The notes below the pieces were generated by a model that saw only the letters and a program-made list of their open reading frames with translations, ran no database searches and was not told the origin of the DNA. A program made the position numbers and the translations under genes. A stretch of 64,000 bases of DNA, taken from assembly GCF_014332515.1 (NCBI RefSeq), contig NZ_VFSD01000009.1:1-64000 (forward strand), in the 5' to 3' direction. Source of the DNA: Pontibacter beigongshangensis. Its GTDB lineage: Bacteria > Bacteroidota > Bacteroidia > Cytophagales > Hymenobacteraceae. Below, piece after piece: positions 1,421-61,306 of this stretch; the stretch's first letter is position 1, and every line of letters begins with the position of its first letter.

Positions 1421-1472
1421 GAGCAGCAGCAACAGCAGAGGTCTCCGGAGGGCATTTTTCATTAGAATAATT
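1421..1472 (+). repeat. Intergenic CTCCGGAGG repeat, copy 1 (forward)
   Basis: CAG-rich head, core TCTCCGGAGGGC, tail TTTTTCATTAGAATAATT. It lies between the convergent ends of galT and the kinase gene, beyond the galT terminator. Confidence 0.85.
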
Positions 1473-1541
1473 CGCAGCTAGTGCCACCACGTGACTTTGT
1501 TCTTTTTAAGTATTGAAGGAAAAGAGTCAGCTTCTGAATAG

Positions 1542-3230
1542 TTATAGCCACTTGTTCAGCAAAACGATCAGGTCTTCCTGCGTAAAGGGCTTGCAGAGGT
1601 GGTCGTTCATGCCCGCTGCCAGGCTTTTATGAATATCTTCTTTATAGGCGTTGGCAGAAAAGGCAATAATCGGGGCTGTGAAGGCAGCTTTTCGGAGTTG
1701 GGCAGTAGCTTCCAGCCCATCAATCCCAGGCATCTGGATGTCCATGAAAATAAGGTCGAAAGCTGTTTCCTGGGCCAGCCGGATGGCTTCGTGCCCGCTT
1801 ATGGCTGTCGTTACTTTAGCGCCGAAGCCTTCCAGGATGTCCTGCATCAGGTACATGTTTATTTCGTTGTCGTCTACGACCAGAATCTGCTTTTCGACCT
1901 GCAGTTTAAAGTTGGGGTCGTTGGCCGGGCTTTCTGGCTGAGCCATGGTTTGCTCAGTTGCTTTTAGCTTAATGCTGAACCAGAACGTGGCGCCATGCTC
2001 TTGCCCCGGCAAAGGGCTGATGACGCCCAACTGGCCCTCCATCTTTTTGACCAGGTTCCGGCAAATGGCGAGCCCCAGGCCAAAGCCCCCATAGCGGCGG
2101 GAGGTGGACTGGTCTGACTGGGTAAAGGAATCAAAAATAAGGGCCTGTTTTTCGTCCGGAATACCTACACCCGTATCGGTTACTGTACAGGTGAGCAGAT
2201 AAGTGTTTCCCTCTGCTTTTTCCGCCCGATGGTGCACGGCAATCTCTCCCCGCTCCGTAAACTTAATGGCATTGCTTACCAGGTTAATAAGAACCTGGTT
2301 AATCCGGTTTGAGTCTCCGATGGCGATTTCGGGAACAGAATCATCGAAGGAGTAGGTAAAGGAGATGTTTTTGCCAGCAGCCAGGTACTTATAGGGCTCC
2401 AGGTTGGCGGCAGCCGTACTTCTGATATCAAACGGTATCAGCTCCAGGCTGATCTTGTCTTGTTCGATCCGGTGCAGGTCCAGAATGTCGCTGAGCAGTT
2501 TGGAGAGTGCGGTGCCGGAGGTTTTGATCAGGTGCAGATACTGTTGCTGAGACTTGTTCAGGTCGGTTTTCATGAGCAGGTCCGTAAAGCCCATGATCCC
2601 GTTCAGGGGCGTCCTGATCTCATGGCTCATGCTCGAGAGGAAATTGGTTTTGGCCTCGTTGGCTGCCTCGGCTTTGTTCTTGGCCTCTTTCAGCTCCAGT
2701 TCCGTGCGCTTTATCTCCGATATGTCTTTGGCAACAATGAGAATACCGTCTATTTCTTTCCGGCTGTTCATCAGGTAAGAAAAAGAGCAGGAGGCAGGCA
2801 GGACAACATGATCCCGCTTTGCCTCCAGAAGCAACTCCACGTTCAGGCATTTGCCCTTCTGCCTGAACTTTGCCATGGCCGTTTCCAGGGCGGCCGCATT
2901 GCTGCTGTGCACCAGCTCCGAAAAATGGTGGCCGGTGAGCTCATCTCCACTTATTCCCAGCAATTCCTCGAAGGCCTCATTTACCGTGCGCACGGTAAAG
3001 TCATTGTTCAGAATGAGCAGCATGTCTACCACTCCCTGGTAAATGCTTTTCATAAAATCTCTGGACACAGTGGAGCTTTTCAGCTCCTGCCCCAACATAC
3101 TGATGCCGGCAATGATGGCATCCATCTCATCTCCAGTTTCAGAGGCTTCTATCTCATAATCGAAGTTGCCGTTGGCTACCTCCGCAATCAGCGTCATGAT
3201 TTCCTCTATTCTATCTTTTAGAACTTTCAC
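1542..3230 (-). CDS. Cytosolic HAMP-PAS hybrid histidine kinase
   Basis: A 562-residue hybrid sensor kinase. In order: a HAMP-like segment (about 1-55) with no membrane helix, a PAS domain (60-175), HisKA with the phospho-acceptor His203 in SSMSHEIRTPLNGI, HATPase_c with Asn316/Asn320, DTGVGIP at 352 and GFGLGLA at 382, and a receiver domain (448-562) with Asp497 in MDIQMPG. The GTG start at 3230 follows an in-frame TAA directly, so the protein cannot extend further; an ATG at 3197 (codon 12) is the alternative. It starts 32 bp behind the oxoamine synthase-GNAT gene and probably shares its transcript. The missing transmembrane sensor suggests it detects an intracellular or membrane-diffusible cue. 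No separate response regulator lies nearby. Confidence 0.93.
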   Translation of the reverse strand: MKVLKDRIEEIMTLIAEVANGNFDYEIEASETGDEMDAIIAGISMLGQELKSSTVSRDFMKSIYQGVVDMLLILNNDFTVRTVNEAFEELLGISGDELTGHHFSELVHSSNAAALETAMAKFRQKGKCLNVELLLEAKRDHVVLPASCSFSYLMNSRKEIDGILIVAKDISEIKRTELELKEAKNKAEAANEAKTNFLSSMSHEIRTPLNGIMGFTDLLMKTDLNKSQQQYLHLIKTSGTALSKLLSDILDLHRIEQDKISLELIPFDIRSTAAANLEPYKYLAAGKNISFTYSFDDSVPEIAIGDSNRINQVLINLVSNAIKFTERGEIAVHHRAEKAEGNTYLLTCTVTDTGVGIPDEKQALIFDSFTQSDQSTSRRYGGFGLGLAICRNLVKKMEGQLGVISPLPGQEHGATFWFSIKLKATEQTMAQPESPANDPNFKLQVEKQILVVDDNEINMYLMQDILEGFGAKVTTAISGHEAIRLAQETAFDLIFMDIQMPGIDGLEATAQLRKAAFTAPIIAFSANAYKEDIHKSLAAGMNDHLCKPFTQEDLIVLLNKWL

Positions 3231-3262
3231 TTATATAGCTTGATACTGTTCTTTAAATGCCG

Positions 3263-5701
3263 TCACTCCTTATCTAGCGCTATGGTAGCCTGCAGCATCT
3301 CCATGGTATAGTTGTCTTTAGCCTGGTAGTAGCCCACCTTAGGGTATAGGGTAGCGCCCAGCTTTTTCTTTTCTATGGAAGCCGAGATGCCAAAGTTAAC
3401 TTTTTTGCATGTAAGCGCATTGGCTCTTCTTATAACCTGGTAAAGTGTCTGCCTGTAAACCCCATACTCCTTCAGGTAGGCGTAGTTCATGCCGATCAGG
3501 GCCGGGCTGTATATATTGTCGTTGTTGATGTGGCAGAAGCATACCGAAACAGGCATTCTGGTGGCTGCAGGGTCGTCTTTTAAGTACAGAACAACAAACT
3601 CCCACGAACTGTTTTCATTCATCAGGTAGAACAGTTTGTCGGGGTACAGAAAGTTGTTGATGCCGTAGTTGTTCTTTTTTACGTTTGCGAAGAGCTGTAT
3701 GGCATACTCCAGTTCATCAGTGCCGAGTTGCTGCTTTACTTCCACGTCGAACAGATGCTCGTTCCGTTTTACTTTTGCTGCAAACTGCTCCCGGCTCTTC
3801 CGGCTTAGGGTTTTCCTGTATTCTTCTTCTGTCGTCCAGTTCAAATGCTCCACCACCCCGGATTCCGGCAGGTCTATTTTCACGAAATCCTGTTCCAGCA
3901 TAAAGTCCTCCATTTCCTTGTCTCCGGCGTCCAGGTCGCGGAGCAGAATGTTGGCGGCGTTCTCTTTTTCCTGATCTTTGTAGAACCCGCCTATCAATGT
4001 CTTCAGGGCTTTTTTCCAGTGTGGACTCTTCCTGTCCAGGAACAGGTGGTTGCCTTCTGTAAACAAAGTGCCCATGGTCAGCCCCACAGAGGTCAGGTAA
4101 TAGGGGTTTAGTTCGCGCTCCTTCTCCAGCACCTTAGAGATAGAAACCTCTGAAAACATGTCGTCTTTTTGCAGGGCTATCACGGCAAAGGTCATCAGAA
4201 CGATCTTACCTTCCGGGTCTTCCACCACATAGTACCTGAAAGCCCAGTTATTCTCTTCTTCCTCGTTGTTGGCAAACGTTTCTTCCAGGAACCGGAGCCC
4301 TTCCCAGTCAAAGATCCCTCTGTTACCCAGGTGCTCGTTCCAGGTGGCAGGATCGAGGTCGGCAATGGTGTTAAAGCATAGCAGCTTCAGCGGGTTTTGG
4401 GCAGCCGGCAGGGGAGAGAGGGCAGGTTCAGAGGGGGGAGTCATTTTAAAGGCTTTCCTTATCTTTTCGAGGGTCTGGTTGGTGGCGGTCAACGCCTTCC
4501 CGAAATGCAGGCACAGCTTATCCACAAGCACTTCTATGTCGTCGTAAGTGTTGTTGAGGGAGATCGTAATGCGGATGCCTATATTTTTGGCAGGCACGGC
4601 CGGAAAGGTAGCCAGGTTTACATACAGGCCATCCTGCAGCAGCTCCTGCACCAAGTGGTTGCCCATATCCATGGTGCCGGTGCCGATAAAGAAGATCGGG
4701 CTCTGGCTCTCGTGCACCAGCGGCAGGTTGGTTTTTTTGAGCAAGGCGTTAAAGTAGGCGATCTTCTTCTGCAACTCCTCCTGGTACGCATAAATTCGAT
4801 TGCTTCTATGAATCCTGGCCGATGCCAGCGCAGCGCCAAGCGTGGCAGGTTCTATCTGCACCGAAAAGGTGAGCGGGCCTCCGAAGTTGTTCACTTTGTT
4901 GTACCACTCCTCGTTGGGGAACAGCGACAAGCCGCCGCAGGCACCAAAGGCTTTGCCGAGGTTGGCCGTCAGCACCATCTTGCGGTAGAGCTTGTTGTCC
5001 ATCTGGCTCATAACATACCCTGTGCCGTGCTTGCCGGCCCAGCTCATGCCATGGGCATCGTCTACATACAAGTGCAGCTGTTCATATTTTTCGGCCAGAG
5101 CTATCATTTCTTTGATAGGTGCAAAATCGCCGTACATAGAATACACCCCATCGGCCATGTACCAGATGCGGTCGAAATTGCTGCGTTGCTTCTTGATCCG
5201 GTCTTCCAGCATCTCCAGGTTGTTGTGGCGGATCATCTCTACGGTCACGCCCTGGGTCAGCATCTTCTTTACCGCCTCCTGCACACTGGCATGCACCTGG
5301 TGGTCCAGAATTACCAGGTCGGTTTGCCTGATCAGGCTCGGAATGGTGGTAAGGTGCGAGAGTGTGCAGTTCTTTGATATAACTACCTGAGCCTGATACA
5401 TCTCCTGAATCATAGTTTCGAGTTCGCGGTAGAGCGGATTCGAAATATAGGTTCTCGACATAGGAAACTGGGTGCCAAACCGCTCAATTGCATCGATGGC
5501 TGCCCGCTTAACTTCGGGGTGGTGCTCCAGGCCCAGATACCCACACGTTCCGAAATGTAGCACTTTGCTGCCATTGAGTATAAGGGATCTTCCATCCAAG
5601 GATTCGTCCTCTGCGTGAAGGTGAATGATGCCTTTTTTTCTTGACATGGAAAGTACAGAATCAACTGTATCGAGGAGGTTGTTGTGTCTTATTTTAGCCA
5701 T
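3263..5701 (-). CDS. Alpha-oxoamine synthase fused to a GNAT/FemAB-like acyltransferase domain
   Basis: An 812-residue two-domain protein. Residues 1 to about 410 form a PLP-dependent alpha-oxoamine synthase, the family of BioF, Kbl, serine palmitoyltransferase and CqsA: VDDAHGMSW (Asp214-His217 region) and Lys250 in TANLGKAFGACGG are the expected cofactor residues. After a Pro/Ser-rich linker (about 420-440), residues 450-800 resemble BioF2/FemAB-type GNAT acyltransferases. Members of the first family condense an acyl thioester with an amino acid. A fused N-acyltransferase could acylate the amine of the product, as in ceramide or sulfonolipid synthesis; the substrate is unknown. It heads a two-gene unit with a hybrid kinase and is divergent from a STAS-like gene 61 bp away. 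The length is about twice that of single-domain homologues. Confidence 0.85.
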   Translation of the reverse strand: MAKIRHNNLLDTVDSVLSMSRKKGIIHLHAEDESLDGRSLILNGSKVLHFGTCGYLGLEHHPEVKRAAIDAIERFGTQFPMSRTYISNPLYRELETMIQEMYQAQVVISKNCTLSHLTTIPSLIRQTDLVILDHQVHASVQEAVKKMLTQGVTVEMIRHNNLEMLEDRIKKQRSNFDRIWYMADGVYSMYGDFAPIKEMIALAEKYEQLHLYVDDAHGMSWAGKHGTGYVMSQMDNKLYRKMVLTANLGKAFGACGGLSLFPNEEWYNKVNNFGGPLTFSVQIEPATLGAALASARIHRSNRIYAYQEELQKKIAYFNALLKKTNLPLVHESQSPIFFIGTGTMDMGNHLVQELLQDGLYVNLATFPAVPAKNIGIRITISLNNTYDDIEVLVDKLCLHFGKALTATNQTLEKIRKAFKMTPPSEPALSPLPAAQNPLKLLCFNTIADLDPATWNEHLGNRGIFDWEGLRFLEETFANNEEEENNWAFRYYVVEDPEGKIVLMTFAVIALQKDDMFSEVSISKVLEKERELNPYYLTSVGLTMGTLFTEGNHLFLDRKSPHWKKALKTLIGGFYKDQEKENAANILLRDLDAGDKEMEDFMLEQDFVKIDLPESGVVEHLNWTTEEEYRKTLSRKSREQFAAKVKRNEHLFDVEVKQQLGTDELEYAIQLFANVKKNNYGINNFLYPDKLFYLMNENSSWEFVVLYLKDDPAATRMPVSVCFCHINNDNIYSPALIGMNYAYLKEYGVYRQTLYQVIRRANALTCKKVNFGISASIEKKKLGATLYPKVGYYQAKDNYTMEMLQATIALDKE

Positions 5702-6224: not shown

Positions 6225-6525
6225 CCGGCTACTGCTGCGGGTCTTGCGGCTTGCCTTTGATTATTCAGAATCAATCTTGCCGATCCGCAGGCAGCAGGAA
6301 CAGAAAAAGCTACGTATTTTTTTTGGCAGCTCCGGGCTAATCTAACCGTCGCAAGCAGAGCTAAAGATCGCTTTACCTGCAGCAGGGAAAAAGCCTCCGG
6401 AGGGCCCTTTTCATTCAAATAATTGCTGGTAGGTAGTTGTTGATTGGTTAATGAAATATTATTCCCGAATTTAAAGCTGAACAACTTTGAATTATTAAAT
6501 AATCACGGCCCTTAACTACACACCG
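6225..6525. other. Convergent gap after the STAS-like gene
   Basis: The gap between two convergent genes holds CTGCTGCGGG-rich sequence near 6230, repeat copy 2 at 6379-6424 and an AT-rich stretch. No open reading frame with family features is seen. Confidence 0.6.
6379..6424 (+). repeat. Intergenic CTCCGGAGG repeat, copy 2 (forward)
   Basis: Short CAGCAG head, core CCTCCGGAGGGCCC, tail TTTTCATTCAAATAATT. It lies between the convergent STAS-like and LacI-type genes. Confidence 0.85.
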
Positions 6526-7679: not shown

Positions 7680-7703
7680 GTTTATGCCAACGTTGGCATA
7701 AAC
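7680..7703. promoter_or_regulatory. LacI-family operator in the regulator-xylB space
   Basis: A perfect 24-bp palindrome with the centre ATGCCAACGTTGGCAT and a central CG step, typical of LacI/GalR operators. It lies 138 bp from the regulator start and 75 bp before xylB. A near-match to the Bacteroidota -7 element (TATTGTTTG) follows at 7705, so a bound repressor would block the xylB promoter. Confidence 0.85.
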
Positions 7704-7777
7704 TATTGTTTGTTCACTCCGGAAATGGCGGCCACGAGCGGTTACCAGGGTGAAGCTGATGCTAAAAAGAATCAAAT

Positions 7778-9265
7778 ATGCTCTTATTAGGAATAGATGT
7801 TGGCACTTCGTCCATTAAAGTGTCGGTTGTGGAGGCAGCTTCGCAGCAATGTGTGGCCTCGGCGCAATACCCAGAGGTAGAGTCCGGCATTATATCGCAT
7901 CAGTCGGGCTGGGCAGAGCAGTCGCCTGATATGTGGTGGGAGCACGTGCAGGCTGCCATCAGCAAGGCAAATGCCAGCGGCAGGTACAACCCGAAAGATA
8001 TCGGCTCCATCGGCATCGCCTACCAGATGCACGGGCTGGTGGTTGTAGACAGGGAGCAGCGCGTGATCCGCGATGCGATTATCTGGAGCGACAGCCGGGC
8101 CGTGGAAATCGGCAGAGGTGCCCTGGAAGCCATAGGCGAGGAGCGAAGCCTGACGCACCTGCTTAACTCACCGGGCAATTTCACCGCCTCCAAGCTGGCC
8201 TGGGTAAAGCAGCACGAGCCTGAAAAATTCGGACAGATCTATAAAGTGATGCTCCCCGGCGACTTTATCGCCATGAAGCTCACCGGCTACATCACCACCA
8301 GCATTTCGGCACTGTCGGAAGGGGTTTTCTGGGATTTTAGGGAAGACCAGCTGTCGGAGGATGTGCTCAACTACTTCGGATTCGACAAGGAACTGATTCC
8401 GGAGATAAAGCCGGTGTTTTCGGAGCACGGCCAGCTGAAGCGCGACATCGCTGCAGCGCTGGGCCTGACGGAAGGCATTCCGGTGACCTATAAATCAGGC
8501 GACCAGCCCAACAATGCGCTTTCGCTGAACGTGCTCAAGCCTGGAGAGGTGGCGGCCACGGCCGGTACCTCCGGGGTGATCTATGGCGTGAGCGACCAAC
8601 TGGTGTACGATCCGCAGTCACGGGTAAACACTTTTGCCCACGTGAACTATGCCAGCGAGGAGAAGCGCGTGGGGGTACTGCTATGCATCAACGGCACCGG
8701 CATTATGAACAGCTGGACCAAAAATATGATCGGCACCGGCATCAGCTACCCCGAGATGAACAGGCTAGGCCAGCAGGTGGCCATCGGCAGCGATGGCCTG
8801 CGGGTGCTGCCTTTCGGAAACGGGGCCGAACGCATGCTCAGCAACAAAATAGTAGGAGCCCATGTCGAGAACATCGACCTGTACAAACACACCCAGCCGC
8901 ACATTTTCAGGGCGGTGCAGGAGGGCATTGCCTTTGCCTTCCGCTACGGCCTGGACATTATGCGCGAGAACGGCATGAACCCGACGGTGATCAGGGCGGG
9001 CAGGGCCAACATGTTCCTGAGCGAGCTGTTTACAGAGGCTTTTGTAAATGCCACCAACGTGCCGGTGGAGCTCTACCCCAGCGATGGCAGCGTGGGAGCG
9101 GCCCTGGGCGCAGGCATCGGTGTGAAGACATTTGCTTCCGGCGACGAGGCCTTCAGCAAAACGCAGCCCCTGCAATTAGTAGAACCACGGGCCGCTGCCG
9201 CTTACGAGCCGGTGTACCAGGAGTGGAAAGCTCTTTTAGAAGAAAAACTGAATAGAAAAAAATAA
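7778..9265 (+). CDS. xylB: Xylulokinase
   Basis: A 495-residue FGGY-family kinase that phosphorylates D-xylulose with ATP, the second step of xylose use. Visible signatures are the N-terminal phosphate loop GIDVGTSSIK, the substrate segment QMHGLV, the SGDQPNNAL motif carrying the catalytic Asp, the ATAGTSGVIYG nucleotide loop, and DGSVGAALGAG near the end. Length is normal. It is the first gene after the divergent regulator and lies 30 bp before xylA; the xylB-xylA order is usual in Bacteroidota. No xylose transporter gene is in the window. Confidence 0.96.
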   Translation: MLLLGIDVGTSSIKVSVVEAASQQCVASAQYPEVESGIISHQSGWAEQSPDMWWEHVQAAISKANASGRYNPKDIGSIGIAYQMHGLVVVDREQRVIRDAIIWSDSRAVEIGRGALEAIGEERSLTHLLNSPGNFTASKLAWVKQHEPEKFGQIYKVMLPGDFIAMKLTGYITTSISALSEGVFWDFREDQLSEDVLNYFGFDKELIPEIKPVFSEHGQLKRDIAAALGLTEGIPVTYKSGDQPNNALSLNVLKPGEVAATAGTSGVIYGVSDQLVYDPQSRVNTFAHVNYASEEKRVGVLLCINGTGIMNSWTKNMIGTGISYPEMNRLGQQVAIGSDGLRVLPFGNGAERMLSNKIVGAHVENIDLYKHTQPHIFRAVQEGIAFAFRYGLDIMRENGMNPTVIRAGRANMFLSELFTEAFVNATNVPVELYPSDGSVGAALGAGIGVKTFASGDEAFSKTQPLQLVEPRAAAAYEPVYQEWKALLEEKLNRKK

Positions 9266-10715: not shown

Positions 10716-10772
10716 CAGCAGCAGTAGAAGCAGCAGTAAATACCTCCGGAGGGGCTTTTTCATTGAAATAAT
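10716..10772 (+). repeat. Intergenic CTCCGGAGG repeat, copy 3 (forward)
   Basis: Long CAG-rich head (two CAGCAG blocks), core CCTCCGGAGGGGC, tail TTTTTCATTGAAATAAT. It lies between the xylA terminator and the promoter of the next gene. Confidence 0.85.
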
Positions 10773-10841
10773 CTGCGTCGTAACCTGTGCAGGATGGAAG
10801 GGGTTTTCTATGCTTTTCAATACAAATAATGTATAAACATA

Positions 10842-11988: not shown

Positions 11989-12166
11989 TGCACTTTCAAC
12001 TTAGAAAATAGAAATGATCATGGCGTGGGCATCCAGTGTTGTGAGGATGATTTGTGGCCTCCGGCACCAGGGAGCTTCCGGTTCAAAATAAATTGGAGGA
12101 GCACTAAATATATTCACCTAAATATTGCCGGGTAAGATGGAGAGGAGAAAAAGGTCTATATTTAGG

Positions 12167-12205
12167 AATTATTCTAATTAAAACGGCCCTCCGGAGGTGC
12201 TGCTG
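12167..12205 (-). repeat. Intergenic CTCCGGAGG repeat, copy 4 (reverse)
   Basis: Reads AATTATTCTAATTAAAA, then GGCCCTCCGGAGG, then TGCTGCTG on the plus strand. It sits between two co-oriented genes. Confidence 0.85.
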
Positions 12206-12386
12206 TTTAGAGTGTAGATGTTTTGTCAGAATCTTTTTAAAGGGCCCCTACTCCGGGGAACTTCGGGATATTCTCGTAACTTTTCTTCCAGGCTTATCGC
12301 CCACAAGTTCCTTCAGCATGACAGCAAAGGCTGAGACAGTTACCAAATCAAGCATTTAACCATTGCTTCATTGGCACATTAATCAG

Positions 12387-12434
12387 ATTATTCTAATGAA
12401 AAAGCCCCTCCGGCGGCGCTGCCAGTCCTGCTGC
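12387..12434 (-). repeat. Intergenic CTCCGGAGG repeat, copy 5 (reverse)
   Basis: Tail ATTATTCTAATGAAAAAG, core CCCCTCCGGCGG (one core change) and a CTGC-rich head. It has the same orientation as copy 4. Confidence 0.85.
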
Positions 12435-12610
12435 GGCAGAACACCTGCAAATATTTTCATGTTAAAGATCGGGTAGCAGGAGAAAAAGGAGGCCAGCCGA
12501 ATATTTTGGCTTTCGAATATAAATCTTTGTGCACAATTCCCGTAAACACCTGAAAAGTTGTAAGGCTACCGACTTACAGCCATTTCAGCCTAACACATAC
12601 GATACGACCT

Positions 12611-19848: not shown

Positions 19849-20934
19849 ATGGACAAACCCCAGATAACGATTGCCGAAAACAGAGAGCTGATTCAGCAGA
19901 AAGCAGTGGCCATCTCTAAAACCATAGATCCGACCAAGCCTGAGACTCTCAGCAACTTCGGGGTGGAGACGCAGCGCAAGCTTGGCTACTATTCCAACGA
20001 GCTGCTGACCAAGGTAAAGGTGAAAGATTCGGGCGATGCCGGCGCGGCCATAAACGAGCTGCTGCACCAGATCAACATGGTCAAGATAGATGAGGCCGAG
20101 AAGCCGGGCATGCTGTCGCGCATCCCGTTCATGAAGAAGTTCGTGGACAAGTCGAAGCGGATCGCCAGCCAGTACAATACCATCTCTGAGAACGTAGACG
20201 ATGTAGTGATCAAGCTGGAGAAGACCCGGCAGAGCGTGCTCAAAGACACCACCAGTCTGGAGGTAATGTTTAACCAGGCAGTGGAGTATATCCACGAAAT
20301 CCGGGCCGTGATCGCTGCCGGCAAAATAAAGATTGAGGAATTAGAGACGCAGACCATTCCGAAGCTGCAGGCCGAAGTAGAGAACAGCGAGCAGGACGAG
20401 CTGGCCGTGCAGCGCCTGAGCGATATGATCGCCTTTAAGGAACGCCTGGAGAAGAAGGTGCACGACTTTACACTCTCCCACACCATCGCCACGCAGTCTA
20501 TGCCGCAGATCCGGATGATCCAGACCACCAACGATGTGCTGGCGCAGAAAATCCAGAACTCCATCGTAACGGTTATCCCGGTATGGCGGCAGCAGGTGGC
20601 CATTGCGCTGGGGCTGGAAAAGCAGCGCAAAGCCCTCGAGATCCAGAAGAAAGTGACCGACACCACCAACGAGATGCTGCTCAAAAACTCGCAGCTGCTC
20701 AAAACCAACGTGGTAGTGGCCGCCCAGGAAAACGAGCGGGGCATTGTGGATGTGGAAACGCTGAAGAAGGTGAACCGCGACATGGTGGAAACACTGGACG
20801 CGGTGATGAAAATATCGGAAGAAGGCAGCAAAAAGCGCGCAGAGGCCGTAAAAGAACTGGCCGCCGTACAGGAAGAACTCAACAGCAAAATAATAGGCAC
20901 CTTCGGCAAGTCTAAGCAGATCGAAACTGAGTAA
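19849..20934 (+). CDS. telA: TelA-family toxic anion resistance protein
   Basis: A 361-residue, almost entirely helical cytosolic protein matching the TelA/KlaA family: the RIPFMKKFVDKSK segment, the long coiled region, the QRLSDMIAFKERLEKKVHDF segment and the TNDVLAQKIQNSIVTVIPVWRQQ motif are characteristic. Plasmid members are linked to tellurite resistance, but chromosomal members often sit in operons of unknown stress function. The stop overlaps the next start (TAATG), so translation is coupled to the 59-residue gene behind it. Confidence 0.9.
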   Translation: MDKPQITIAENRELIQQKAVAISKTIDPTKPETLSNFGVETQRKLGYYSNELLTKVKVKDSGDAGAAINELLHQINMVKIDEAEKPGMLSRIPFMKKFVDKSKRIASQYNTISENVDDVVIKLEKTRQSVLKDTTSLEVMFNQAVEYIHEIRAVIAAGKIKIEELETQTIPKLQAEVENSEQDELAVQRLSDMIAFKERLEKKVHDFTLSHTIATQSMPQIRMIQTTNDVLAQKIQNSIVTVIPVWRQQVAIALGLEKQRKALEIQKKVTDTTNEMLLKNSQLLKTNVVVAAQENERGIVDVETLKKVNRDMVETLDAVMKISEEGSKKRAEAVKELAAVQEELNSKIIGTFGKSKQIETE

Positions 20935-21947: not shown

Positions 21948-21994
21948 AATTATTCTAATGAAATAGACCCTCCGGAGCTTTTGTTGCTGCTGCT
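21948..21994 (-). repeat. Intergenic CTCCGGAGG repeat, copy 8 (reverse)
   Basis: Tail AATTATTCTAATGAAA, core CCCTCCGGAGC, head GTTGCTGCTGC on the plus strand. It starts 10 bp after the end of the telA operon. Confidence 0.85.
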
Positions 21995-22136
21995 TATTTT
22001 GTCTGAATAAGAAATTTAGGAAGAGCAGGATGATTCTTGTCTGAATCGAAATTTACAGAATTAAAGAATGTTCAGAATTCTTACGTCTATATGTTAACAG
22101 AAACTTGTAGGTCCCATTATTCTCATCCATTCAATC

Positions 22137-27130: not shown

Positions 27131-28645
27131 ATGAAGGATATAGATAAATACAGAGCGATGTTCACTAATCCGAACTGGGATTACGATACCTTGGAGGCGG
27201 CAGACCAGGTGATAGGCAGGATTGGGCGGGAGTACCTGAAGCTGAAGACCTACCCGAACCAGATCGAGATCGTGACTTCGGAGCAGATGCTCGATGCCTA
27301 CGCCCTCACCGGCCTGCCCACTTCTTACCCGCACTGGAAGTTCGGGAAAGACTTTGTGCTCAACCAGAATAACTATACCAAAGGGCGCATGGGGCTGTCG
27401 TACGAGCTGGTCATCAACTCTAACCCCTGCATCAGTTACAACATGGAGAACAACTCCACCTGCATGATGCTGCTCGTGATTGCCCATGCCTGCCAGGGAC
27501 ATAACGCCTTTTTCGCCAACAACTACATGTTCCTGGACTGGACTTCTGCCGACTCTATTGTAGATTATATGGTGTTTGCCAGAGACTACATCCTTAAGTG
27601 CGAGGAGGAGTTTGGGGAAGAGGAAGTGGAAAAGGTGCTGGATGCATGCCACGCCCTCATGAACCATGGGGTAGATAAATATAAAAAGCCTTCTAAAATC
27701 TCGGCCATGCAGGAGAACGAAAGGTTGAAACGTCTCACTGCCATTAAACGCGAGAACTACAACGAGCTCTGGCGAACCTTGCCCCCTTCAGCCGACCTGC
27801 CCGAGCCTGGTTCCAAAGAGGAGCACCGCTTCCCAAAAGAGCCGGAAGAGAACATTCTGTACTTTATCGAAAAATATGCACCGGCACTGCCGGTCTGGAA
27901 ACGTGAAATTATACGGATTGTGCGCAAGGTGGCGCAGTATTTTTACCCGCAAGGTGCCACCAAGGTCATGAACGAAGGCTTTGCCACTTTTACCCATTAC
28001 CACATCATGAATAAAATGTTTGAGGAGGGCTACGTGAACGATGGCTTTATGCTGGAGTTTATCAAGAGCCATAGCGGGGTGCTGTACCAGCCGGAATACA
28101 ACAGCAAGTACTATTCGGGCCTGAACCCTTACACACTCGGCTTCAATATTTTTATGGACATCAAGCGCATTTGCCAGGAGCCTACCGCCGAAGACAGGGA
28201 ATGGTTCCCGAACCTCGTGGGCAAGGACTGGCTGGAGCAGGTGCACTATGTGATGGAGAACTTTCGTGACGACAGCTTTATACTCCAGTATCTTTCGCCC
28301 AAGGTTATCCGCGACATGCGGCTGTTTACCATTGTAGACAACGAACTGGAGACAACCTACGAGATTGGCGCTATCCATAACGAGCGGGGCTACAGAAAAG
28401 TGCGGGAGCAGTTGAGCAACCAGTACGACCGCTCGTCTTATATCCCTAACATACAGGCTACCAAGGTAGACCTGTACAAAACCAGCAAACTGTACCTGAC
28501 GCACACCATCCAGAGCGACCGACGCCTGGAAGCCGAAACGGCCAGGGCCACGCTAAAACACATCCGTTATCTGTGGGGGTTTCCGGTTGAGCTCCATTCT
28601 AAAAACAAGCTCGGCATAAACGAGAGCACCTTTGAGATAAAGTAA
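27131..28645 (+). CDS. spoVR: SpoVR-family protein
   Basis: A 504-residue SpoVR/YcgB-family protein. I start at the ATG at 27131 (MKDIDKYRAMF); an in-frame extension to 27059 adds 24 residues that are not typical. Family segments include LPTSYPHWKFGK, the AHACQGHNAFFANNYMF region, and GFATFTHYHIMNKMFEEG. It completes the prkA-yeaH-spoVR operon. The molecular activity is unknown; in Bacillus the protein is needed for the spore cortex, whereas here it is likely tied to stress. Confidence 0.95.
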   Translation: MKDIDKYRAMFTNPNWDYDTLEAADQVIGRIGREYLKLKTYPNQIEIVTSEQMLDAYALTGLPTSYPHWKFGKDFVLNQNNYTKGRMGLSYELVINSNPCISYNMENNSTCMMLLVIAHACQGHNAFFANNYMFLDWTSADSIVDYMVFARDYILKCEEEFGEEEVEKVLDACHALMNHGVDKYKKPSKISAMQENERLKRLTAIKRENYNELWRTLPPSADLPEPGSKEEHRFPKEPEENILYFIEKYAPALPVWKREIIRIVRKVAQYFYPQGATKVMNEGFATFTHYHIMNKMFEEGYVNDGFMLEFIKSHSGVLYQPEYNSKYYSGLNPYTLGFNIFMDIKRICQEPTAEDREWFPNLVGKDWLEQVHYVMENFRDDSFILQYLSPKVIRDMRLFTIVDNELETTYEIGAIHNERGYRKVREQLSNQYDRSSYIPNIQATKVDLYKTSKLYLTHTIQSDRRLEAETARATLKHIRYLWGFPVELHSKNKLGINESTFEIK

Positions 28646-28733
28646 GAGCAGCTGACCAAAATGTTCACTACTCAAATTGAAAAGTTCTTTTCCAGGTTCT
28701 TCAGCTTTAACGGCAGTAATATCTCCAATTAAT

Positions 28734-28787
28734 CAGCAGCAGCAACAGTACCTACCATCTCCTGAGGGCCATTTTCATTAGAATAAT
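28734..28787 (+). repeat. Intergenic CTCCGGAGG repeat, copy 9 (forward)
   Basis: Head CAGCAGCAGCAACAG, core TCTCCTGAGGGCC (one change), tail ATTTTCATTAGAATAAT. It lies after spoVR. Confidence 0.85.
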
Positions 28788-28865
28788 CAGGCGAGCCAGT
28801 GGAGCTAAAAATTCTGGGTATTTTACTGGTACAATGCTGTGTACGGAAACGAAAGAGCATTCTAA

Positions 28866-43800: not shown

Positions 43801-43916
43801 GACAAATAGTTGTGATGTCGAATGTGCCTCTGCTTTAGAGTCGTTTTTCCAAACGCTCACAGGTCTGAAAGGCACTGTGAGGTTAAGTTGGCAACAGGTG
43901 CATCAGGCGTGGTACT

Positions 43917-43947
43917 GCCTCCGGAGGGCCATTTTCATTAGAATAAT
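43917..43947 (+). repeat. Intergenic CTCCGGAGG repeat, copy 15 (forward, headless)
   Basis: Core GCCTCCGGAGGGCC and tail ATTTTCATTAGAATAAT. It lies inside the metal transport operon, between the two permease genes. Confidence 0.85.
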
Positions 43948-43987
43948 CGGGACTTTCCTTCACATTTCTTAACAACCAGCAACCAAC

Positions 43988-45271
43988 CTAAGGTATCCTG
44001 TTGTTGTGCGGGTCCAGCACCGGGTATTCCAGTTCCTGCATCAGTTTTTGCTCCAGTTCCGGGGTAATGATGTGCTCAATGGTTTCGGCGTCTTCGTGCA
44101 CGTGGTCGGAGGCGAGCTCCAGGAACTGGGTCAGGTAGAGCTCCCATAACCTGTGCAGGCGCACCACCCGCATGCCGCGTGTCTGCCCTTGCCTGGTGAG
44201 CATCCACGATTGCCTGTCTTTCTGCACATAGCCCTCTCGTCTAAGTTTATTTAAACCCCTGCTGATCGCTCTTTTAGGGATCTGACGCCTTTCCATAATA
44301 TCGGTTATATTGCGGGAGGTGAAATAATCCTGGTTTGGCTCGCCCAACTGGTACATCACTTTCAGGAGGTTCTCTTCCAGCACCCGCGACTTGTTGCGGC
44401 GCTGCTTCCACATGCGCGAAACCCAGCCTTTGCCGGGGGCAAAGGCGAAGGACGTAATGGCGATCATAGAAATGATGAGCACGATCCAGGGCCCGGTGGG
44501 CATTGCCGGAGCGGTATAAGACACGAAAGCTCCTGCCATGCCGGAGAAAGCACCCATCAGGGCCGCCAGCACCAGCATCAGTCGCAGGTTCTCTGTCCAG
44601 AAACGGGCGGCCGCAGCCGGTGTGATCAGCATGGCCGCCATCAGCACCACGCCGACCGCCTGTATGCCCACCACTACCGCAAACACGGTAAGAGTGGTCA
44701 GCAGCAGCTCCAGTGCCCGCACCGGGTACCCGATGGTGTGGGCATAGGCTTCGTCGAAGCAGAGCAGCATCAGCTCTTTGTAGAATACGATGGTGCACAC
44801 GAGCAGGAGCAAAGCCACAACGCTGAACACGATCAGGTCTTCGCCGATCAGGGCGGCGGCGTTTCCGAACAGGAACTTGTCGAGGCCGCTTTGAGCCGCG
44901 TTGCCGGAGTGCTGTATGGATGTAAGCAGCAAAATGCCGATTCCGAAAAAGACGGAGAGCACCAGCCCGATGGCCGTGTCTTCTTTGATGCGGGAGCGGG
45001 AGGTGATCACATCGATCACGACCAGCGACAGCCAGCCGGTGATGAAAGCGCCCAGCAGCAGGATGAGCGGGTTTTTGGTGCCAGACAGCATAAAGGCCAG
45101 GCAAACTCCCGGCAGCACGGCATGCGCCACCGCATCGCCCACCAGCGCCCGCTTGCGGAGCAGGCTAAAACAACCCACCACCGCCGAGCTACTGGCCAGC
45201 AGCACCGACCCAATCGTCACATACCGGACGTTGGCATCCGTAAACGAGAAGAACTCTGTAAAGTCACTCAT
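43988..45271 (-). CDS. ABC-3 metal permease fused to a DtxR/MntR-like regulatory domain
   Basis: A 427-residue protein. Residues 1-275 are an ABC-3 permease with LVGDAVAHAVLPGVCLAF and GVVLMAAMLITPAAAARF. After a basic linker, residues 295-427 form a cytosolic winged helix (FTSRNITDIMERRQIPKRAI, LNKLRREGYV) and the DtxR-type dimerisation helix region (LHRLWELYLTQFLELASDHVHEDAETIEHI, cut here to LHRLWELYLTQFLELASDHV). The second half could sense metal and gate transport or bind DNA at the membrane. This domain pairing is known in Bacteroidota Mn/Fe/Zn permeases. Confidence 0.9.
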   Translation of the reverse strand: MSDFTEFFSFTDANVRYVTIGSVLLASSSAVVGCFSLLRKRALVGDAVAHAVLPGVCLAFMLSGTKNPLILLLGAFITGWLSLVVIDVITSRSRIKEDTAIGLVLSVFFGIGILLLTSIQHSGNAAQSGLDKFLFGNAAALIGEDLIVFSVVALLLLVCTIVFYKELMLLCFDEAYAHTIGYPVRALELLLTTLTVFAVVVGIQAVGVVLMAAMLITPAAAARFWTENLRLMLVLAALMGAFSGMAGAFVSYTAPAMPTGPWIVLIISMIAITSFAFAPGKGWVSRMWKQRRNKSRVLEENLLKVMYQLGEPNQDYFTSRNITDIMERRQIPKRAISRGLNKLRREGYVQKDRQSWMLTRQGQTRGMRVVRLHRLWELYLTQFLELASDHVHEDAETIEHIITPELEQKLMQELEYPVLDPHNNRIP

Positions 45272-45536
45272 TGGTGTTGGTCGTTAATTGTTGGTTGATG
45301 ATTGTTAAAGGGTGCTTTTTGTGCTATTAAAAAATCAAATAAGCATCACGAGCGAGGACGCTTGCGCCATATTTACCTAAATTTATCCTTGTCTACCAGA
45401 ATTATTCTAATGAAAAAGCCCCTCCAGAGTAACTGCGAATCCTGGTACTGCTCCTTCTCTGTCTTAAGTTGCTATTTACATCCATCCCCAAAAGCCCAAT
45501 TTCTAATTTTGAATTTCTAATTTTGAATTTAAAAAA
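45272..45536. other. Intra-operon gap with repeat copy 16
   Basis: 265 bp between the ATPase gene and the permease-DtxR gene, with GTTAATTGTTGG-type words near 45280-45310, the reverse repeat copy 16 and an AT-rich end. No gene is seen. Confidence 0.45.
45400..45429 (-). repeat. Intergenic CTCCGGAGG repeat, copy 16 (reverse, headless)
   Basis: Tail AATTATTCTAATGAAAAAG and core CCCCTCCAGAG. It is the second copy inside the metal operon, opposite in orientation to copy 15. Confidence 0.8.
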
Positions 45537-51271: not shown

Positions 51272-51321
51272 AATTATTCCAATCAAAATGCCCCTCCGGA
51301 GGCAAAGGCTGCTACTGCTGC
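51272..51321 (-). repeat. Intergenic CTCCGGAGG repeat, copy 17 (reverse)
   Basis: Tail AATTATTCCAATCAAAATG, core CCCCTCCGGAGG, head GGCTGCTACTGCTGCC. Confidence 0.85.
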
Positions 51322-51376
51322 CTGGTACGTCGGACCCAATTCTGCCAGGAGCCGGAGTTTCTATTCCCTATCAAGT

Positions 51377-57071: not shown

Positions 57072-57072
57072 C

Positions 57073-57125: not shown

Positions 57126-57197
57126 CATATTTCCCGGGCTATGGGTCTTATGCCCGAACGTGTTTCCGGCTGGCTTCTATCCCTGAGCCGGGATGAG

Positions 57198-57236
57198 CAG
57201 CAGCCCCTCCGGAGGGGCTTTTTTATTGGAATAATT
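57198..57236 (+). repeat. Intergenic CTCCGGAGG repeat, copy 18 (forward, fully palindromic core)
   Basis: Short CAGCAG head. The core AGCCCCTCCGGAGGGGCT (57202-57219) is an 18-bp perfect palindrome, followed by TTTTTATTGGAATAATT. This copy alone looks like a terminator. Confidence 0.85.
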
Positions 57237-57369: not shown

Positions 57370-57637
57370 GCTCCCCGGGCCAAAGAGGAAAAAAACAAGC
57401 CATTGGGCATTTTCTTATCAGCCTTTGCAGGTGCAGATATATATGGCAGGCAGGTATAAAGACCGATTGAGAGCCAGGAATTAATATATAACAAAATTAA
57501 TATATAAGGGTAGTCTGATATGTGGATGTTAGAACGGTAAAAATTAAAAAATCGTGTTAACTTGTTGCCCGTTATTACGTTCTAAGGAGGGTGAGGAAAT
57601 TAACAGTTACTCGGGAAGTTGATCATATCTAAGTAAA

Positions 57638-58027: not shown

Positions 58028-58039
58028 ATACCTGTCGTG

Positions 58040-58092
58040 CCCTCTCTAACTAAAAGAACCCGCCCGGAGCGGGTTCTTTTAGTTAGAGAGGG
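58040..58092. terminator. 24-bp perfect bidirectional terminator
   Basis: The arms 58040-58063 and 58069-58092 pair fully with a 5-nt loop (CCGGA). A4/T4 runs are inside the arms. The right arm contains the stop codon of the convergent lipoprotein gene. Confidence 0.85.
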
Positions 58093-58465: not shown

Positions 58466-59054
58466 AGGTTGCTTTATAATTTCACAAAGTTGCGCCTTAC
58501 GGGCTTGCTTTACAAGTTAATGTTGAAAAAATCCGGACCTGTAGTGGGTTTAACTGGCTTCATACCTTTTAGCCAGGGGGACTTCCGATAATTCGTGAAA
58601 TCTAAACCCTGGTGTGCAGTATATCTGGTCCTTTAAGTGTGAGGCCGCCGGCAGCAGATGCAAAAAACGGGAAGATTTGTATAAATATCATAAGCTGACC
58701 TTTAAAATTACTGCCTGCCGAATTATTGTTGGCAGCCAGAAGAAACTCAGGACAGAACCAGGCTAGAGCTAGGTGAGTGTAGTTTGGTGGCACTGCCTGG
58801 CAGGAAAGGAGCTGTCAGAAAAGCTTCGCTCTATTTCAGCTGAAAACACAATAATGGAATAGGAGCCACTCGTTTAACAGGTGATCTCGCCTCCTGCAAA
58901 AAACCATAATTGATTTGTGTGGACTGGTGTAGGATTTGGCAAATCATTGTGTAGCTTTAGGTGTCGGAAATTGAACTTTTCAGCACGAAAGGGAACAATA
59001 ACACTTGCCAAACCTGTTGTTTTTCTAAATGCGTAAATCACTTAGCATACTCCT
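58466..59054. other. Divergent gap before the L,D-transpeptidase gene
   Basis: About 590 bp of mixed, rather AT-rich sequence. The frame at 58602-58793 has no family features. No repeat copy is present. Confidence 0.45.
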
Positions 59055-59873
59055 ATGATAAAAACAGCCTTAACTTCCTTAGCCTTATGCCTGTTTTCTG
59101 TTAATACACCTGTTGCCAGTAGTAATATGGCCAGCCTGATGCCAACCTTAGAGGTTAATGCTCCCCTGGCTTCGGCTTCGGCCGCCATAAGCTTTACAGA
59201 AAAACAAATGCTGTTTGATGATTATGTGCTGGGCGTGTACGAAGATGCAAAGCTTAAGAAAGCAGGCTTGTCGTTAGAGGTTTTTAAAAAGGCAATCATC
59301 GGCTACCAGAACTTTAAGCAGCACAACATGCTGGCCCCTGCCAAGTCTATTATCACGGTAATAGATTTCACCAAAACCAGCCGCGACAAGCGCCTCTGGA
59401 TCATCGACCTGAAATCAAAGAAGGTGCTGTTCAACACGTTGGTGGCTCATGGCAGAAACTCCGGCGAGGACAAAGCCGTGGAGTTCTCTAATGAGTTCAA
59501 CTCCTACAAAAGCAGCATGGGCTTCTATATTACTAACAAAACGTATTTCGGCAAGCATGGCCTGTCGCTGAGACTTACGGGCATGGACGAGAACTATAAT
59601 TCCAACGCCATGGAGCGTGCCATTGTGATGCACGGCGCCGACTATGTAAGCGACTCTTTTATTAAGCAGTATGGCCGCCTGGGCCGCAGCCTTGGCTGCC
59701 CTGCCCTGCCAACTGCCGTTACCAAAGAAGTGGTAGAACTCATCAAAGACAATACCTGCCTGTATATTCATACAGCAGACAAAACCTATGCCTCCAACTA
59801 TCTGGACCCAACAGTGGCCGTGGAGATGTATGCATTGGAGATGCCCGTACTGGAAATGCACGCCAGCAATTAA
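59055..59873 (+). CDS. Murein L,D-transpeptidase-like (YkuD_2) protein
   Basis: A 272-residue secreted protein with a short signal peptide (TALTSLALCLFSVNTPVAS). The catalytic region contains IVMHGADYVSD and the Cys motif RLGRSLGCPALP, with the catalytic Cys in GCPAL. The AHGRNSGEDKAVEFSNE segment is typical of the YkuD_2 group. Such enzymes act on peptidoglycan crosslinks in the periplasm. It ends in a strong terminator. Confidence 0.92.
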   Translation: MIKTALTSLALCLFSVNTPVASSNMASLMPTLEVNAPLASASAAISFTEKQMLFDDYVLGVYEDAKLKKAGLSLEVFKKAIIGYQNFKQHNMLAPAKSIITVIDFTKTSRDKRLWIIDLKSKKVLFNTLVAHGRNSGEDKAVEFSNEFNSYKSSMGFYITNKTYFGKHGLSLRLTGMDENYNSNAMERAIVMHGADYVSDSFIKQYGRLGRSLGCPALPTAVTKEVVELIKDNTCLYIHTADKTYASNYLDPTVAVEMYALEMPVLEMHASN

Positions 59874-59909
59874 ATTTATGGCCCGCACACAGGCCGGCAA
59901 TATAGCAGA

Positions 59910-59941
59910 AACGCCCCTTCACGAAGCAGTGAAGGGGCGTT
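59910..59941 (+). terminator. Terminator after the L,D-transpeptidase gene
   Basis: AACGCCCCTTCAC pairs with its exact complement around a 6-nt loop and is followed by TGTGTTTT. It lies 36 bp after the stop. Confidence 0.85.
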
Positions 59942-60011
59942 TGTGTTTTAGAACCTGTTGTACCTCCGGATTCAGATCAGAACGGGCCAATAAGTTTTTT
60001 TGAAAAAATAA

Positions 60012-60209
60012 TCAAGTCTGATCTTTGGTGGTCTTAACAAGGCCAATGCCCGAGAAGAAGAAAATCAGTCCCACTAAAAAAGGAACCAGGGCGGTGTACC
60101 GGCCAATAAATCCTCCATCTCCTCCCATTACAAAGGCATAGGCCCCCCAAATGATGCCAATAATCCCCAGGATTGTGAGAATGGCACCGAATGCTCGTTT
60201 CATATTCAT
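60012..60209 (-). CDS. Small two-helix membrane protein
   Basis: A 65-residue protein with two membrane helices (AILTILGIIGIIWGAYAFV and ALVPFLVGLIFFFSGIGLV) joined by a Gly-rich loop. The codon pattern and hydrophobic layout are those of a real gene. I know no function. ATGs at 60209 and 60203 are both possible starts. Confidence 0.7.
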   Translation of the reverse strand: MNMKRAFGAILTILGIIGIIWGAYAFVMGGDGGFIGRYTALVPFLVGLIFFFSGIGLVKTTKDQT

Positions 60210-60346
60210 GATATATCACCTAATGTTTAGTACAAATTTTAAATATAGTTTTTTTACGGAATCCAGGTAAATAAGTCTGGTATCCTGGCCTCTGATTTTG
60301 AAGTTAGAAGTTTAGTGGCTGCAGGTTTTTTGCCATCGGGGCCTGT

Positions 60347-60733
60347 ATGATTATTCCCAACATCCGGTTGCCCGCCAATCTGCACGCCCCGTTGCCGCAA
60401 CTACAAGTGCCTGCTGCACGTTTCCTTATTGCCGGAGGCTCATATGCAGCAGCCTTCTCTCTAAAAATAGCAGGCGCCATGATCAGAAAGCTCATAAACA
60501 GACGGCTTGGCCGGGAAGACGAACCGGAGGCAGACAGGCTGGCGCTGCACCTGACGACGCAGGCCAGCTATGACCCGCGTGCCTCCTTGGAAGTAATGCG
60601 CATGCTGGAAAAGGTAAGCGGTTGGGAGCCGAAATATACACAGACACTCCCCGGCCCTGATAATAGAATTGCTGAGATCGAAAGGGCCATACAGCAGGAA
60701 AACGCGAGCGGCTTGACTGACAAAAAGAGGTAG
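60347..60733 (+). pseudogene. C-terminal remnant of an M48-family peptidase
   Basis: The 128-residue frame carries the second half of an M48 (Oma1/LoiP-like) protease: EDEPEADRLALHL with the third zinc ligand region, YDPRASLEVMRMLEKVSG and LPGPDNRIAEIERAI. The HExxH motif that must precede it is missing, and the upstream 130 bp show no trace of it. The first 45 residues look like a degraded helix region. It cannot be an active protease as it stands. Its stop TAG is at the border of repeat copy 20. Confidence 0.75.
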
Positions 60734-60775
60734 CAGCAGCAGCGTCTCTGGAGGTCCTTTTTGATTGGAATAATT
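60733..60775 (+). repeat. Intergenic CTCCGGAGG repeat, copy 20 (forward)
   Basis: Head GCAGCAGCAGC, core TCTCTGGAGGTCC, tail TTTTTGATTGGAATAATT. It starts at the stop codon of the peptidase remnant. Confidence 0.8.
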
Positions 60776-61306
60776 TAATTTAATATGCTGATGGGTTAAT
60801 GTGCTGATTATTCAAATTGGAAATTTGAAGATGAGAGGATTTGGAAATGAAGGACCTGCGCAGGCTATCAGAAAAATCACGGTCCCTGTACACGCAGGCA
60901 AATGGGCGCATCGGTAGACAGGGGGGCAGGTGTCTGTTTATCATATATTCCGATTTACCGGGAGCATAGGAGACTTTGCCACTTTGGCCAAAATCCCCTT
61001 AATCCAGGTCTTACTAACAAATTATTTGAATGAATTTGCCCCTCCAGAGGCTTTGCTGCCGCTGCCTTTATAGGATCTTTTTCATGCCAGATGCAGCCTG
61101 TAGCCTGATGTAAATCTGCCCGATGGATGTAGTGCAAGCTGGCAACTCGCCTGCCTTTTACCGGCTTGCCGGAAACTATCCGGTTCATAAAAAACTTTTT
61201 GATGACCGAGGCCTTCTTGCAGTGCTATAACTCGTAAAAAGCTATGCTATCTGTTGATTTAAGGATCGATTAAACAAATTTGTAAAGGGCCGTAAGGCTT
61301 GAAAAA
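60776..61306. other. Gap with a low-complexity tract and repeat copy 21
   Basis: Positions 60776-60855 consist of TTAATGTGCTGATTATTCAAA-like words, shortened here to TAATGTGCTGATTATTC. Repeat copy 21 lies at 61020-61066. No gene is supported. Confidence 0.5.
61020..61066 (-). repeat. Intergenic CTCCGGAGG repeat, copy 21 (reverse)
   Basis: Tail AATTATTTGAATGAATTTG, core CCCCTCCAGAGG, head TTTGCTGCCGCTGCC. It is opposite in orientation to copy 20, 245 bp away. Confidence 0.8.

What the first reader, a model, noticed from the sequence alone, without database searches (positions are those of the whole stretch)
1421..61066. A dispersed intergenic repeat family with at least 21 copies in 64 kb
Copies share a CAG-rich head of variable length, a core near CCTCCGGAGGGCC and a conserved tail close to TTTTCATTAGAATAATT. 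Thirteen read forward and eight reverse. Twenty of 21 lie behind at least one gene end (many in convergent gaps) and none interrupts an intact gene. Three pairs lie within 140-250 bp of each other (12167/12387, 57198/57341, 60733/61020), recalling REP/BIME clusters. The tail is better conserved than the palindromic core, and changes in the core are often one-sided (CTCTGGAGG, CTCCAGAGG), so the stem is not strictly selected. That is unusual for a plain terminator and suggests either a mobile unit moved in trans or a protein- or RNA-binding tail.
Basis: seen in the sequence. Interest (0 to 1): 0.78.

Follow-up and report, generated by a model that had tools for sequence, protein, structure and literature searches.

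The report
Dialect-switching DNA signal behind genes
A bacterium carries more than a thousand copies of a 57-base DNA signal, mostly behind its genes; a sister species shares the right half of the signal at many of the same places but usually has a different left half, as if a genome-wide signal had changed its dialect.

Summary
In detail: 21 copies in the window, and 1,339 tail matches in the 5.75-Mb genome against 2 for a reversed control. Among 50 genus and 204 family genomes only this genome and its sister (matched to Pontibacter qinzhouensis) carry the family. The unit is about 57 bp: a left head, a palindrome CTYCGGARG and the tail TTTTNATTNNAATAATY. The tail is shared; heads differ: CAG-like in 161 of 212 units here, ACCCTTGG-like in 259 of 313 in the sister, each at background in the other species. 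No folding signal, no target duplication, no RAYT link. Three aligned gaps show net inserts of 81-117 bp, one polarised by 14 outgroup loci. Yet many copies keep place and orientation in both species, with constant tail sites 94% identical while four-fold sites are 55% identical, and non-neighbouring motif sites are almost unlinked. I read it as a short unit that enters by insertion and is then kept as a protein-binding DNA signal with species dialects. It behaves like DNA uptake sequences but fails one defining test (those are not inserted). The binding factor and the benefit are unknown. REP/BIME membership fails; replacement of terminators is not supported.

The parts
1416..1472 (+). 57-bp unit (head, palindromic core, tail); convergent gap
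   Evidence: 46.9 bits; absent from the sister gap
6368..6424 (+). 57-bp unit; convergent gap
   Evidence: 46.5 bits; sister gap has one in opposite orientation
10717..10773 (+). 57-bp unit; tandem gap
   Evidence: 45.0 bits; sister gap has one in opposite orientation
12167..12223 (-). 57-bp unit; tandem gap, first of a pair
   Evidence: 45.7 bits; sister gap has one unit in opposite orientation
12386..12442 (-). 57-bp unit; tandem gap, second of the pair
   Evidence: 44.8 bits
17001..17057 (+). 57-bp unit; tandem gap
   Evidence: 43.9 bits
19052..19108 (+). 57-bp unit; divergent gap, the one copy not behind a gene end
   Evidence: 48.3 bits; absent from the sister gap
21948..22004 (-). 57-bp unit; convergent gap
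   Evidence: 44.8 bits; putative positional partner in the sister
28732..28788 (+). 57-bp unit; tandem gap
   Evidence: 42.8 bits
32060..32116 (-). 57-bp unit; convergent gap
   Evidence: 39.7 bits
33381..33437 (+). 57-bp unit; tandem gap
   Evidence: 48.0 bits
37268..37324 (-). 57-bp unit, weaker copy; convergent gap
   Evidence: 26.3 bits
39737..39793 (+). 57-bp unit; convergent gap
   Evidence: 36.2 bits
41683..41739 (+). 57-bp unit with core shifted by one base; tandem gap
   Evidence: 19.8 bits, exact tail; sister gap has one in opposite orientation
43892..43948 (+). 57-bp unit; tandem gap
   Evidence: 48.3 bits; putative positional partner in the sister
45400..45456 (-). 57-bp unit; tandem gap
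   Evidence: 48.1 bits; putative positional partner in the sister with a different head
51272..51328 (-). 57-bp unit; convergent gap
   Evidence: 48.4 bits; putative positional partner in the sister
57180..57236 (+). 57-bp unit; tandem gap, first of a pair
   Evidence: 47.1 bits
57313..57369 (+). 57-bp unit; tandem gap, second of the pair
   Evidence: 33.8 bits
60719..60775 (+). 57-bp unit; tandem gap
   Evidence: 42.9 bits
61020..61076 (-). 57-bp unit; tandem gap
   Evidence: 40.0 bits

Best explanation
Each copy is a composite double-stranded binding site of about 57 bp: a left part that differs between the two species, a central palindrome CTYCGGARG and a shared AT-rich right part. Shown: it can enter a 3' gene gap as a unit (one insertion of 81 bp polarised by outgroups, two more aligned gaps with net differences of 92 and 117 bp), without a detectable target duplication. 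Shown: many copies lie at the same place and orientation in two species whose four-fold sites differ by 45%, and they resemble the motif, not their positional partner. Shown: the left part follows the species (about three quarters of copies here, about four fifths in the sister), with the other species' head at background level. Inferred: a DNA-binding protein of this lineage recognises the site, and selection or biased recombination keeps the sites fit for it; when its preference changed, the left parts followed. Inferred and weaker: because copies gather behind genes and two thirds of those in tandem gaps face the way of the genes whatever the GC skew, the benefit or tolerance is linked to transcription at the ends of transcription units (a roadblock, insulator or topology site), next to ordinary terminators rather than in place of them.
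For: Restriction to two sister genomes. Hardly any folding signal on either strand as RNA or DNA (mean z -0.17 to -0.57); A-tracts and T-tracts interchange at two places in the sister's units. Insertion. Shared place: 33 of 52 element-bearing orthologous gaps have it in both species; orientation agrees in 11 of 14 single-single and 6 of 8 double-double gaps; in 23 concordant pairs the distance to a gene end differs by a median of 11 bp against 66 bp for shuffled partners, none of 2,000 shuffles as low. Constraint: 0.940 identity at 11 tail sites and 0.869 at 5 core sites in 32 positional pairs against 0.551 at 20,780 four-fold sites. Motif rather than descent: variable motif sites agree no more between partners than between shuffled partners; mean z 0.03-0.10 over 378 non-neighbouring site pairs. 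Few half-decayed copies. Orientation bias 88:43 and 129:66, the same with and against GC skew.
Against: No protein was identified. Partner pairs were found by their motif score and the constant sites were chosen for being constant, so the 94% is biased upward; the scarcity of half-decayed copies is the independent support. Sharing of gaps may partly reflect a preference for long convergent gaps. Four gaps in the window carry elements in opposite orientation in the sister and 19 of 52 gaps have the unit in one species only, so turnover is not small. Nearest-neighbour distances are somewhat lower than after column shuffling (57-mer 14.3 against 17.6 here, 11.5 against 13.5 in the sister, with a few near-identical heads in the sister), so some descent or duplication is present. 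48 and 47 units show neither head. A mobile unit with fast turnover and strict sequence demands could imitate constraint. A 57-bp site with a triplet-rich half is odd for one DNA-binding protein. The transcription link is a bias, not a rule.
Confidence: 0.5

Rival explanations
1. Uptake-sequence-like drive: the site favours uptake of self DNA in a naturally competent cell, and recombination of taken-up DNA keeps the sites at consensus; dialect change follows a change of the receptor.
For: Locus-by-locus consensus with near linkage equilibrium, species dialects with a shared part, A/T tracts flanking a core, copy number like that of known systems (1,465 core sites in H. influenzae and 1,892 in N. 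meningitidis per a passage of PMC7811141), dialects described in PMC3630211 (passages).
Against: A passage of PMC7811141 says USS evolve by point mutation and are not inserted elements; here whole-unit insertion is seen. Orientation is biased to transcription. Almost no copies in genes (2 of 212 and 0 of 313). The unit is far longer. Competence in these species was not looked at here.
Confidence: 0.2
2. Short selfish mobile unit moved in trans by a recombinase, with copies homogenised by gene conversion or repeated insertion at old sites; no benefit to the host.
For: Unit insertion, limitation to two species, longer gaps and lower coding fraction than in a relative without it (0.76 and 0.73 against 0.83), nearest-neighbour distances somewhat below shuffled ones.
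Against: Conversion of whole units would leave linked variants; non-neighbouring sites are almost unlinked (6 and 4 of 378 pairs with z above 4). No TSD or inverted-end signal. No mobile gene tied to it: Y1 transposases occur in 43 of 50 genomes of the genus and are not flanked by it above background; RVT_1 gives no match in this genome. Other transposase families were not searched.
Confidence: 0.25
3. A head-first or bidirectional transcription terminator that replaces ordinary intrinsic terminators.
For: Position behind genes, presence in 43 of 49 convergent gaps over 200 bp here (43 of 64 in the sister), gene ends with a head-first unit within 60 bp outnumber those with a tail-first one 134 to 55, T-run after a GC-rich palindrome, and up to 25% of head-first units in a class score as terminators in a simple scan.
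Against: Hardly any folding signal. In convergent gaps ordinary terminators are found at 45-69% of gene ends in all four element classes, before or after the unit, against 38-44% without a unit; in tandem gaps they are not rarer with a head-first unit (31 of 61 and 42 of 101) than with a tail-first one (8 of 30 and 15 of 47) (scores inside the unit included). In the polarised insertion the unit sits between the stop codon and an ordinary terminator.
Confidence: 0.12
4. REP/BIME family moved by a RAYT.
For: Intergenic, 3'-end placed, high copy number, six Y1_Tnp matches in this genome.
Against: No stem, no RAYT flanking above background, more same-oriented than inverted pairs. Bacteroidetes RAYTs of subclass 2.6 go with atypical structures (PMC6006769, passages), so an atypical case is not wholly excluded.
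Confidence: 0.05

Closest known systems
DNA uptake sequences (DUS of Neisseriaceae, USS of Pasteurellaceae)
   Same: High copy number, permissive sites, conserved copies, dialects around a shared part, A/T-rich flanks to a core (passages of PMC3630211, PMC2397512, PMC7811141).
   Different: Here units of about 57 bp with insertion of the whole unit seen, transcription-linked orientation, almost none in genes, only two sister species, uptake untested.
REP/BIME sequences with RAYT (TnpAREP) transposases
   Same: Short, intergenic, many downstream of genes, many copies (passages of PMC3733652 and PMC6006769).
   Different: No hairpin with a tetranucleotide foot, not at more than background density near the Y1 genes, no excess of inverted pairs.
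HIP1 palindrome of cyanobacteria
   Same: A genome-wide iterated palindromic motif (search listing and abstract start of PMC4390886).
   Different: HIP1 is 8 bp; that it is not an inserted unit and how it is kept are recalled, not read here.
MITEs and other miniature insertion elements
   Same: Short non-coding unit found as presence or absence at orthologous places.
   Different: No terminal inverted repeat and no target duplication signal; the definition is recalled.

Membership tests
REP/BIME (RAYT-mobilised) | Palindromic unit able to form a hairpin | tested here: not met
   Mean folding z -0.17 to -0.57 over the first 150 units of each species, both strands, RNA and DNA parameters
REP/BIME (RAYT-mobilised) | RAYT gene flanked by the repeat | tested here: not met
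   5 units in the 19.3 kb around six Y1_Tnp matches, about 5.7 expected from 212 per 716 kb; three of six loci have none
REP/BIME (RAYT-mobilised) | GTAG or related tetranucleotide at the foot of the stem | tested here: not met
   Position table shows no GTAG; GGAG occurs only inside the core palindrome, with no stem beside it
DNA uptake sequence (DUS/USS) | High-copy conserved motif, with dialects between related species | tested here: met
DNA uptake sequence (DUS/USS) | Arises by point mutation, not by insertion | tested here: not met
   Net inserts of 81, 92 and 117 bp in three aligned gaps, the first polarised by outgroups; definition from a passage of PMC7811141
DNA uptake sequence (DUS/USS) | Raises uptake of DNA by competent cells | not testable with these tools
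   Needs an uptake assay
MITE | Terminal inverted repeats and target site duplication (recalled) | tested here: not met
   Best z 3.5 among 3,430 direct settings per species, about what so many settings give by chance; inverted ends reach 3.3
Intrinsic terminator | Stable hairpin before a T-run | tested here: not met
   A T-run is there, a stable hairpin as a rule is not; 0-25% of units per class score as terminators
Retrotransposed (SINE-like) element | Reverse transcriptase in the genome | tested here: not met
   RVT_1: no match in this genome, one fragment under the cut-off in the sister; other RT models not searched

The most novel reading that the evidence does not exclude
A self-DNA signal system of a new kind in Bacteroidota: a 57-bp site, spread by insertion and then kept by biased recombination or by selection through one lineage-specific DNA-binding protein, whose left half was rewritten at most of its more than a thousand places when the protein's preference changed after two species parted.
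Probability: 0.25. Interest if true: 0.88.

Novelty: new variant of a known kind. Interest (0 to 1): 0.66.

Why it matters
Repeats that enter by insertion normally decay, and signals that are held at consensus are known (for uptake sequences) to arise by point mutation. This family seems to do both, and its left half changed across the genome between sister species while the right half stayed. That makes the pair of species a direct test case for how a genome-wide signal and its reader change together, and for whether drive or selection keeps such sites.

Tried and rejected
Rejected: chance; restriction to this window; REP/BIME; MITE ends and target duplications; terminator replacement; orientation by replication strand (GC skew as proxy); retroposition through an RVT_1 reverse transcriptase; a known RNA family (no Rfam match over the gathering score in the window). 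I first read the sister comparison as independent insertions, because both single-single gaps then seen were opposite; with more sequence this turned round to 11 same and 3 opposite. The hit in G079 lies in what reads by eye as coding sequence and was taken as chance. A relic of the sister's head in this genome was looked for and is at background. Viral contigs hold no exact match to a core-plus-tail pattern. A search for larger source sequences gave other intergenic repeats of 100-250 bp near the units, not a parent element. No paper in the held library holds both 'Pontibacter' and 'intergenic repeat'; two hold Pontibacter, repetitive, intergenic and genome and are unrelated by title; none names Pontibacter qinzhouensis; three hold natural transformation, Bacteroidetes and uptake sequence and look unrelated by title. 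Papers were seen as passages only (PMC3733652, PMC6006769, PMC2397512, PMC3630211, PMC7811141) or as listing and abstract start (PMC4390886).

Weak points: genes were called by my own ORF script; 716 kb of 5.75 Mb and 1,076 kb of about 6.2 Mb were examined in detail; the outgroup gap was read in 14 of the 48 other genomes that matched; of 19 one-sided gaps accepted 3 units as alignable on both sides, the 117-bp one with a weak right side (score 16, threshold 14); the output was cut.
Full report
OBSERVATION. The window holds 21 copies: 13 forward and 8 reverse, 20 behind a gene end, none inside a called gene. The tail alone gives 19 matches with up to 3 mismatches where shuffles give 0.21. In the whole genome (5.75 Mb, 75 contigs) it gives 1,339 matches with up to 2 mismatches against 2 for the reversed pattern. 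By weight matrix there are 212 copies in 716 kb here and 313 in 1,076 kb of the sister, which would scale to about 1,700 and 1,800 per genome (my arithmetic).

DISTRIBUTION. A 31-position sequence model from 73 copies was run over 50 genomes of the genus: two saturate the search (145 of 145 scored places match), G000 and G068; four others have one borderline hit each (E 0.004-0.01), 44 none. Over 204 family genomes only those two stand out, a third single hit lying in apparent coding sequence. In a sample of 390 genomes of the order only G000 matches (the sister cannot have been in that sample). Searches of more than 40 genomes use stricter filters that lose weak matches.

ANATOMY. Counted from the first T of the tail as 0, the shared part runs from about -14 to +16: CTCCGGAGGGSC here and CTTCGGAAGGSC in the sister, then TTTTNATTNNAATAATY. 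In the sister the unit begins at -40 with ACCCTTGGC, followed by A- or T-tracts at -28 to -25 and -19 to -16; here the same stretch is CAG-rich in register with the tail. Single-strand folding is only slightly better than shuffles (mean z -0.17 to -0.57), so this is read as a double-stranded site.

PLACE. In gaps over 200 bp the unit is present in 43 of 49 convergent, 86 of 161 tandem and 13 of 58 divergent gaps here, and in 43 of 64, 140 of 248 and 29 of 90 in the sister. In tandem gaps it faces the same way as the genes 88:43 and 129:66 (p 1e-4 and 8e-6). The bias is the same where genes agree with GC skew and where they do not (51:26 and 37:17 here, 27:15 and 18:8 in the sister), and there is none in convergent gaps relative to skew (28:31 and 17:16) (contigs of 60 kb or more), so it follows the genes, not the skew. 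Ordinary terminators remain in these gaps, before or after the unit.

ENTRY. Of the units in 19 one-sided orthologous gaps, three could be aligned on both sides by the script's limits, with net inserts of 92, 81 and 117 bp; the last has a weak right side. The 81-bp case lies directly behind a stop codon in the sister; this genome and all 14 outgroup loci read have the stop followed by a short spacer and, in nearly all by eye, a hairpin with a T-run, and no unit; the best matrix scores in those 15 loci are below 0. It is therefore a gain in the sister. No target duplication stands out in the whole set.

UPKEEP. Among 139 orthologous gaps 33 have the unit in both species, 11 only here, 8 only in the sister, 87 in neither. 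Orientation agrees in 11 of 14 single-single and 6 of 8 double-double gaps. In 23 concordant pairs distances to a gene end agree to a median of 11 bp against 66 bp after shuffling. In 32 putative positional pairs the tail's constant sites are 94.0% and the core's 86.9% identical, while four-fold sites of orthologous genes are 55.1%, heads 29.2% and right flanks 30.3% identical. The near right flank is slightly more alike in partners than in random pairs (0.310 against 0.264), the head hardly (0.291 against 0.276). Sites that vary within the motif agree no better between partners than between shuffled partners. Non-neighbouring motif sites show almost no linkage (6 of 378 pairs with z above 4 here, 4 of 378 in the sister), while neighbours do (14 of 87 in each), and nearest-neighbour distances are somewhat below shuffled ones. 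By and large copies match the motif, not a parent copy, with some local duplication.

DIALECT. Counted per unit in the 32 bases left of the core: GCAGCAG exact in 98 and with one mismatch in 161 of 212 units here, in 2 and 14 of 313 in the sister, against 16 and 16 by flank control for one mismatch. ACCCTTGG with one mismatch in 220 and with two in 259 of 313 units of the sister, in 1 and 11 of 212 here, against 12 and 8 by control for two mismatches. Neither form is seen in 48 units here and 47 in the sister. Each species' head is thus at background in the other.

READING. A unit that can be inserted and is then kept near consensus place by place, with a left half that changed in concert at most copies, is best read as a binding site of a lineage-specific protein; what the protein does is open. 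A link to transcription ends, uptake-like drive, and selfish spread with homogenisation remain; their weights are in the fields above. The nearest known kind by behaviour is the uptake sequence, but one defining feature (origin by point mutation, PMC7811141 passage) was tested and is not met, so membership is not claimed.

Noticed in passing
L188:14470-14520 (sister, contig C1) and many places in G000: A second dispersed repeat of about 45 bp with a CTCGCAG...CTGCGAG palindrome; the rows list more than twenty G000 places matching this stretch, several at 100% over 36-38 bases.
   Followed up: no
Sister contigs C15 near 560-740, C79 near 20440-20640, C20 near 7690-7870, C210 near 27960-28130, C151 near 5300-5540: A GC-rich intergenic repeat of about 200 bp, roughly 79-94% identical between the aligned copies; Rfam gave no match to it in the three loci scanned (the only match was a SAM riboswitch in L206).
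   Followed up: partly
window 43988-45271 (-): One gene joins an ABC-3 metal permease with an iron-dependent repressor C-terminal domain.
   Followed up: no
G000 contig C1 227608-228519: A duplicated stretch with a tRNA-like gene (not checked with ARAGORN); both copies carry the unit just behind a hairpin, with different heads.
   Followed up: no
G000 and G068, stretches fetched: Lower coding fraction (0.76 and 0.73) than in 400 kb of the relative G020 (0.83), with longer gaps (own gene caller).
   Followed up: partly
window 12083-12412 and G000 contigs C21, C74, C75:127865-128145: The gap with the pair of units shares stretches of up to about 250 bp at 68-79% identity with other gaps, so other repeat families are nested there.
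   Followed up: partly
G002 contig C1: Fourteen RVT_1 matches, several with the same score and spaced in pairs, which looks like a multiplied retroelement in this relative.
   Followed up: no
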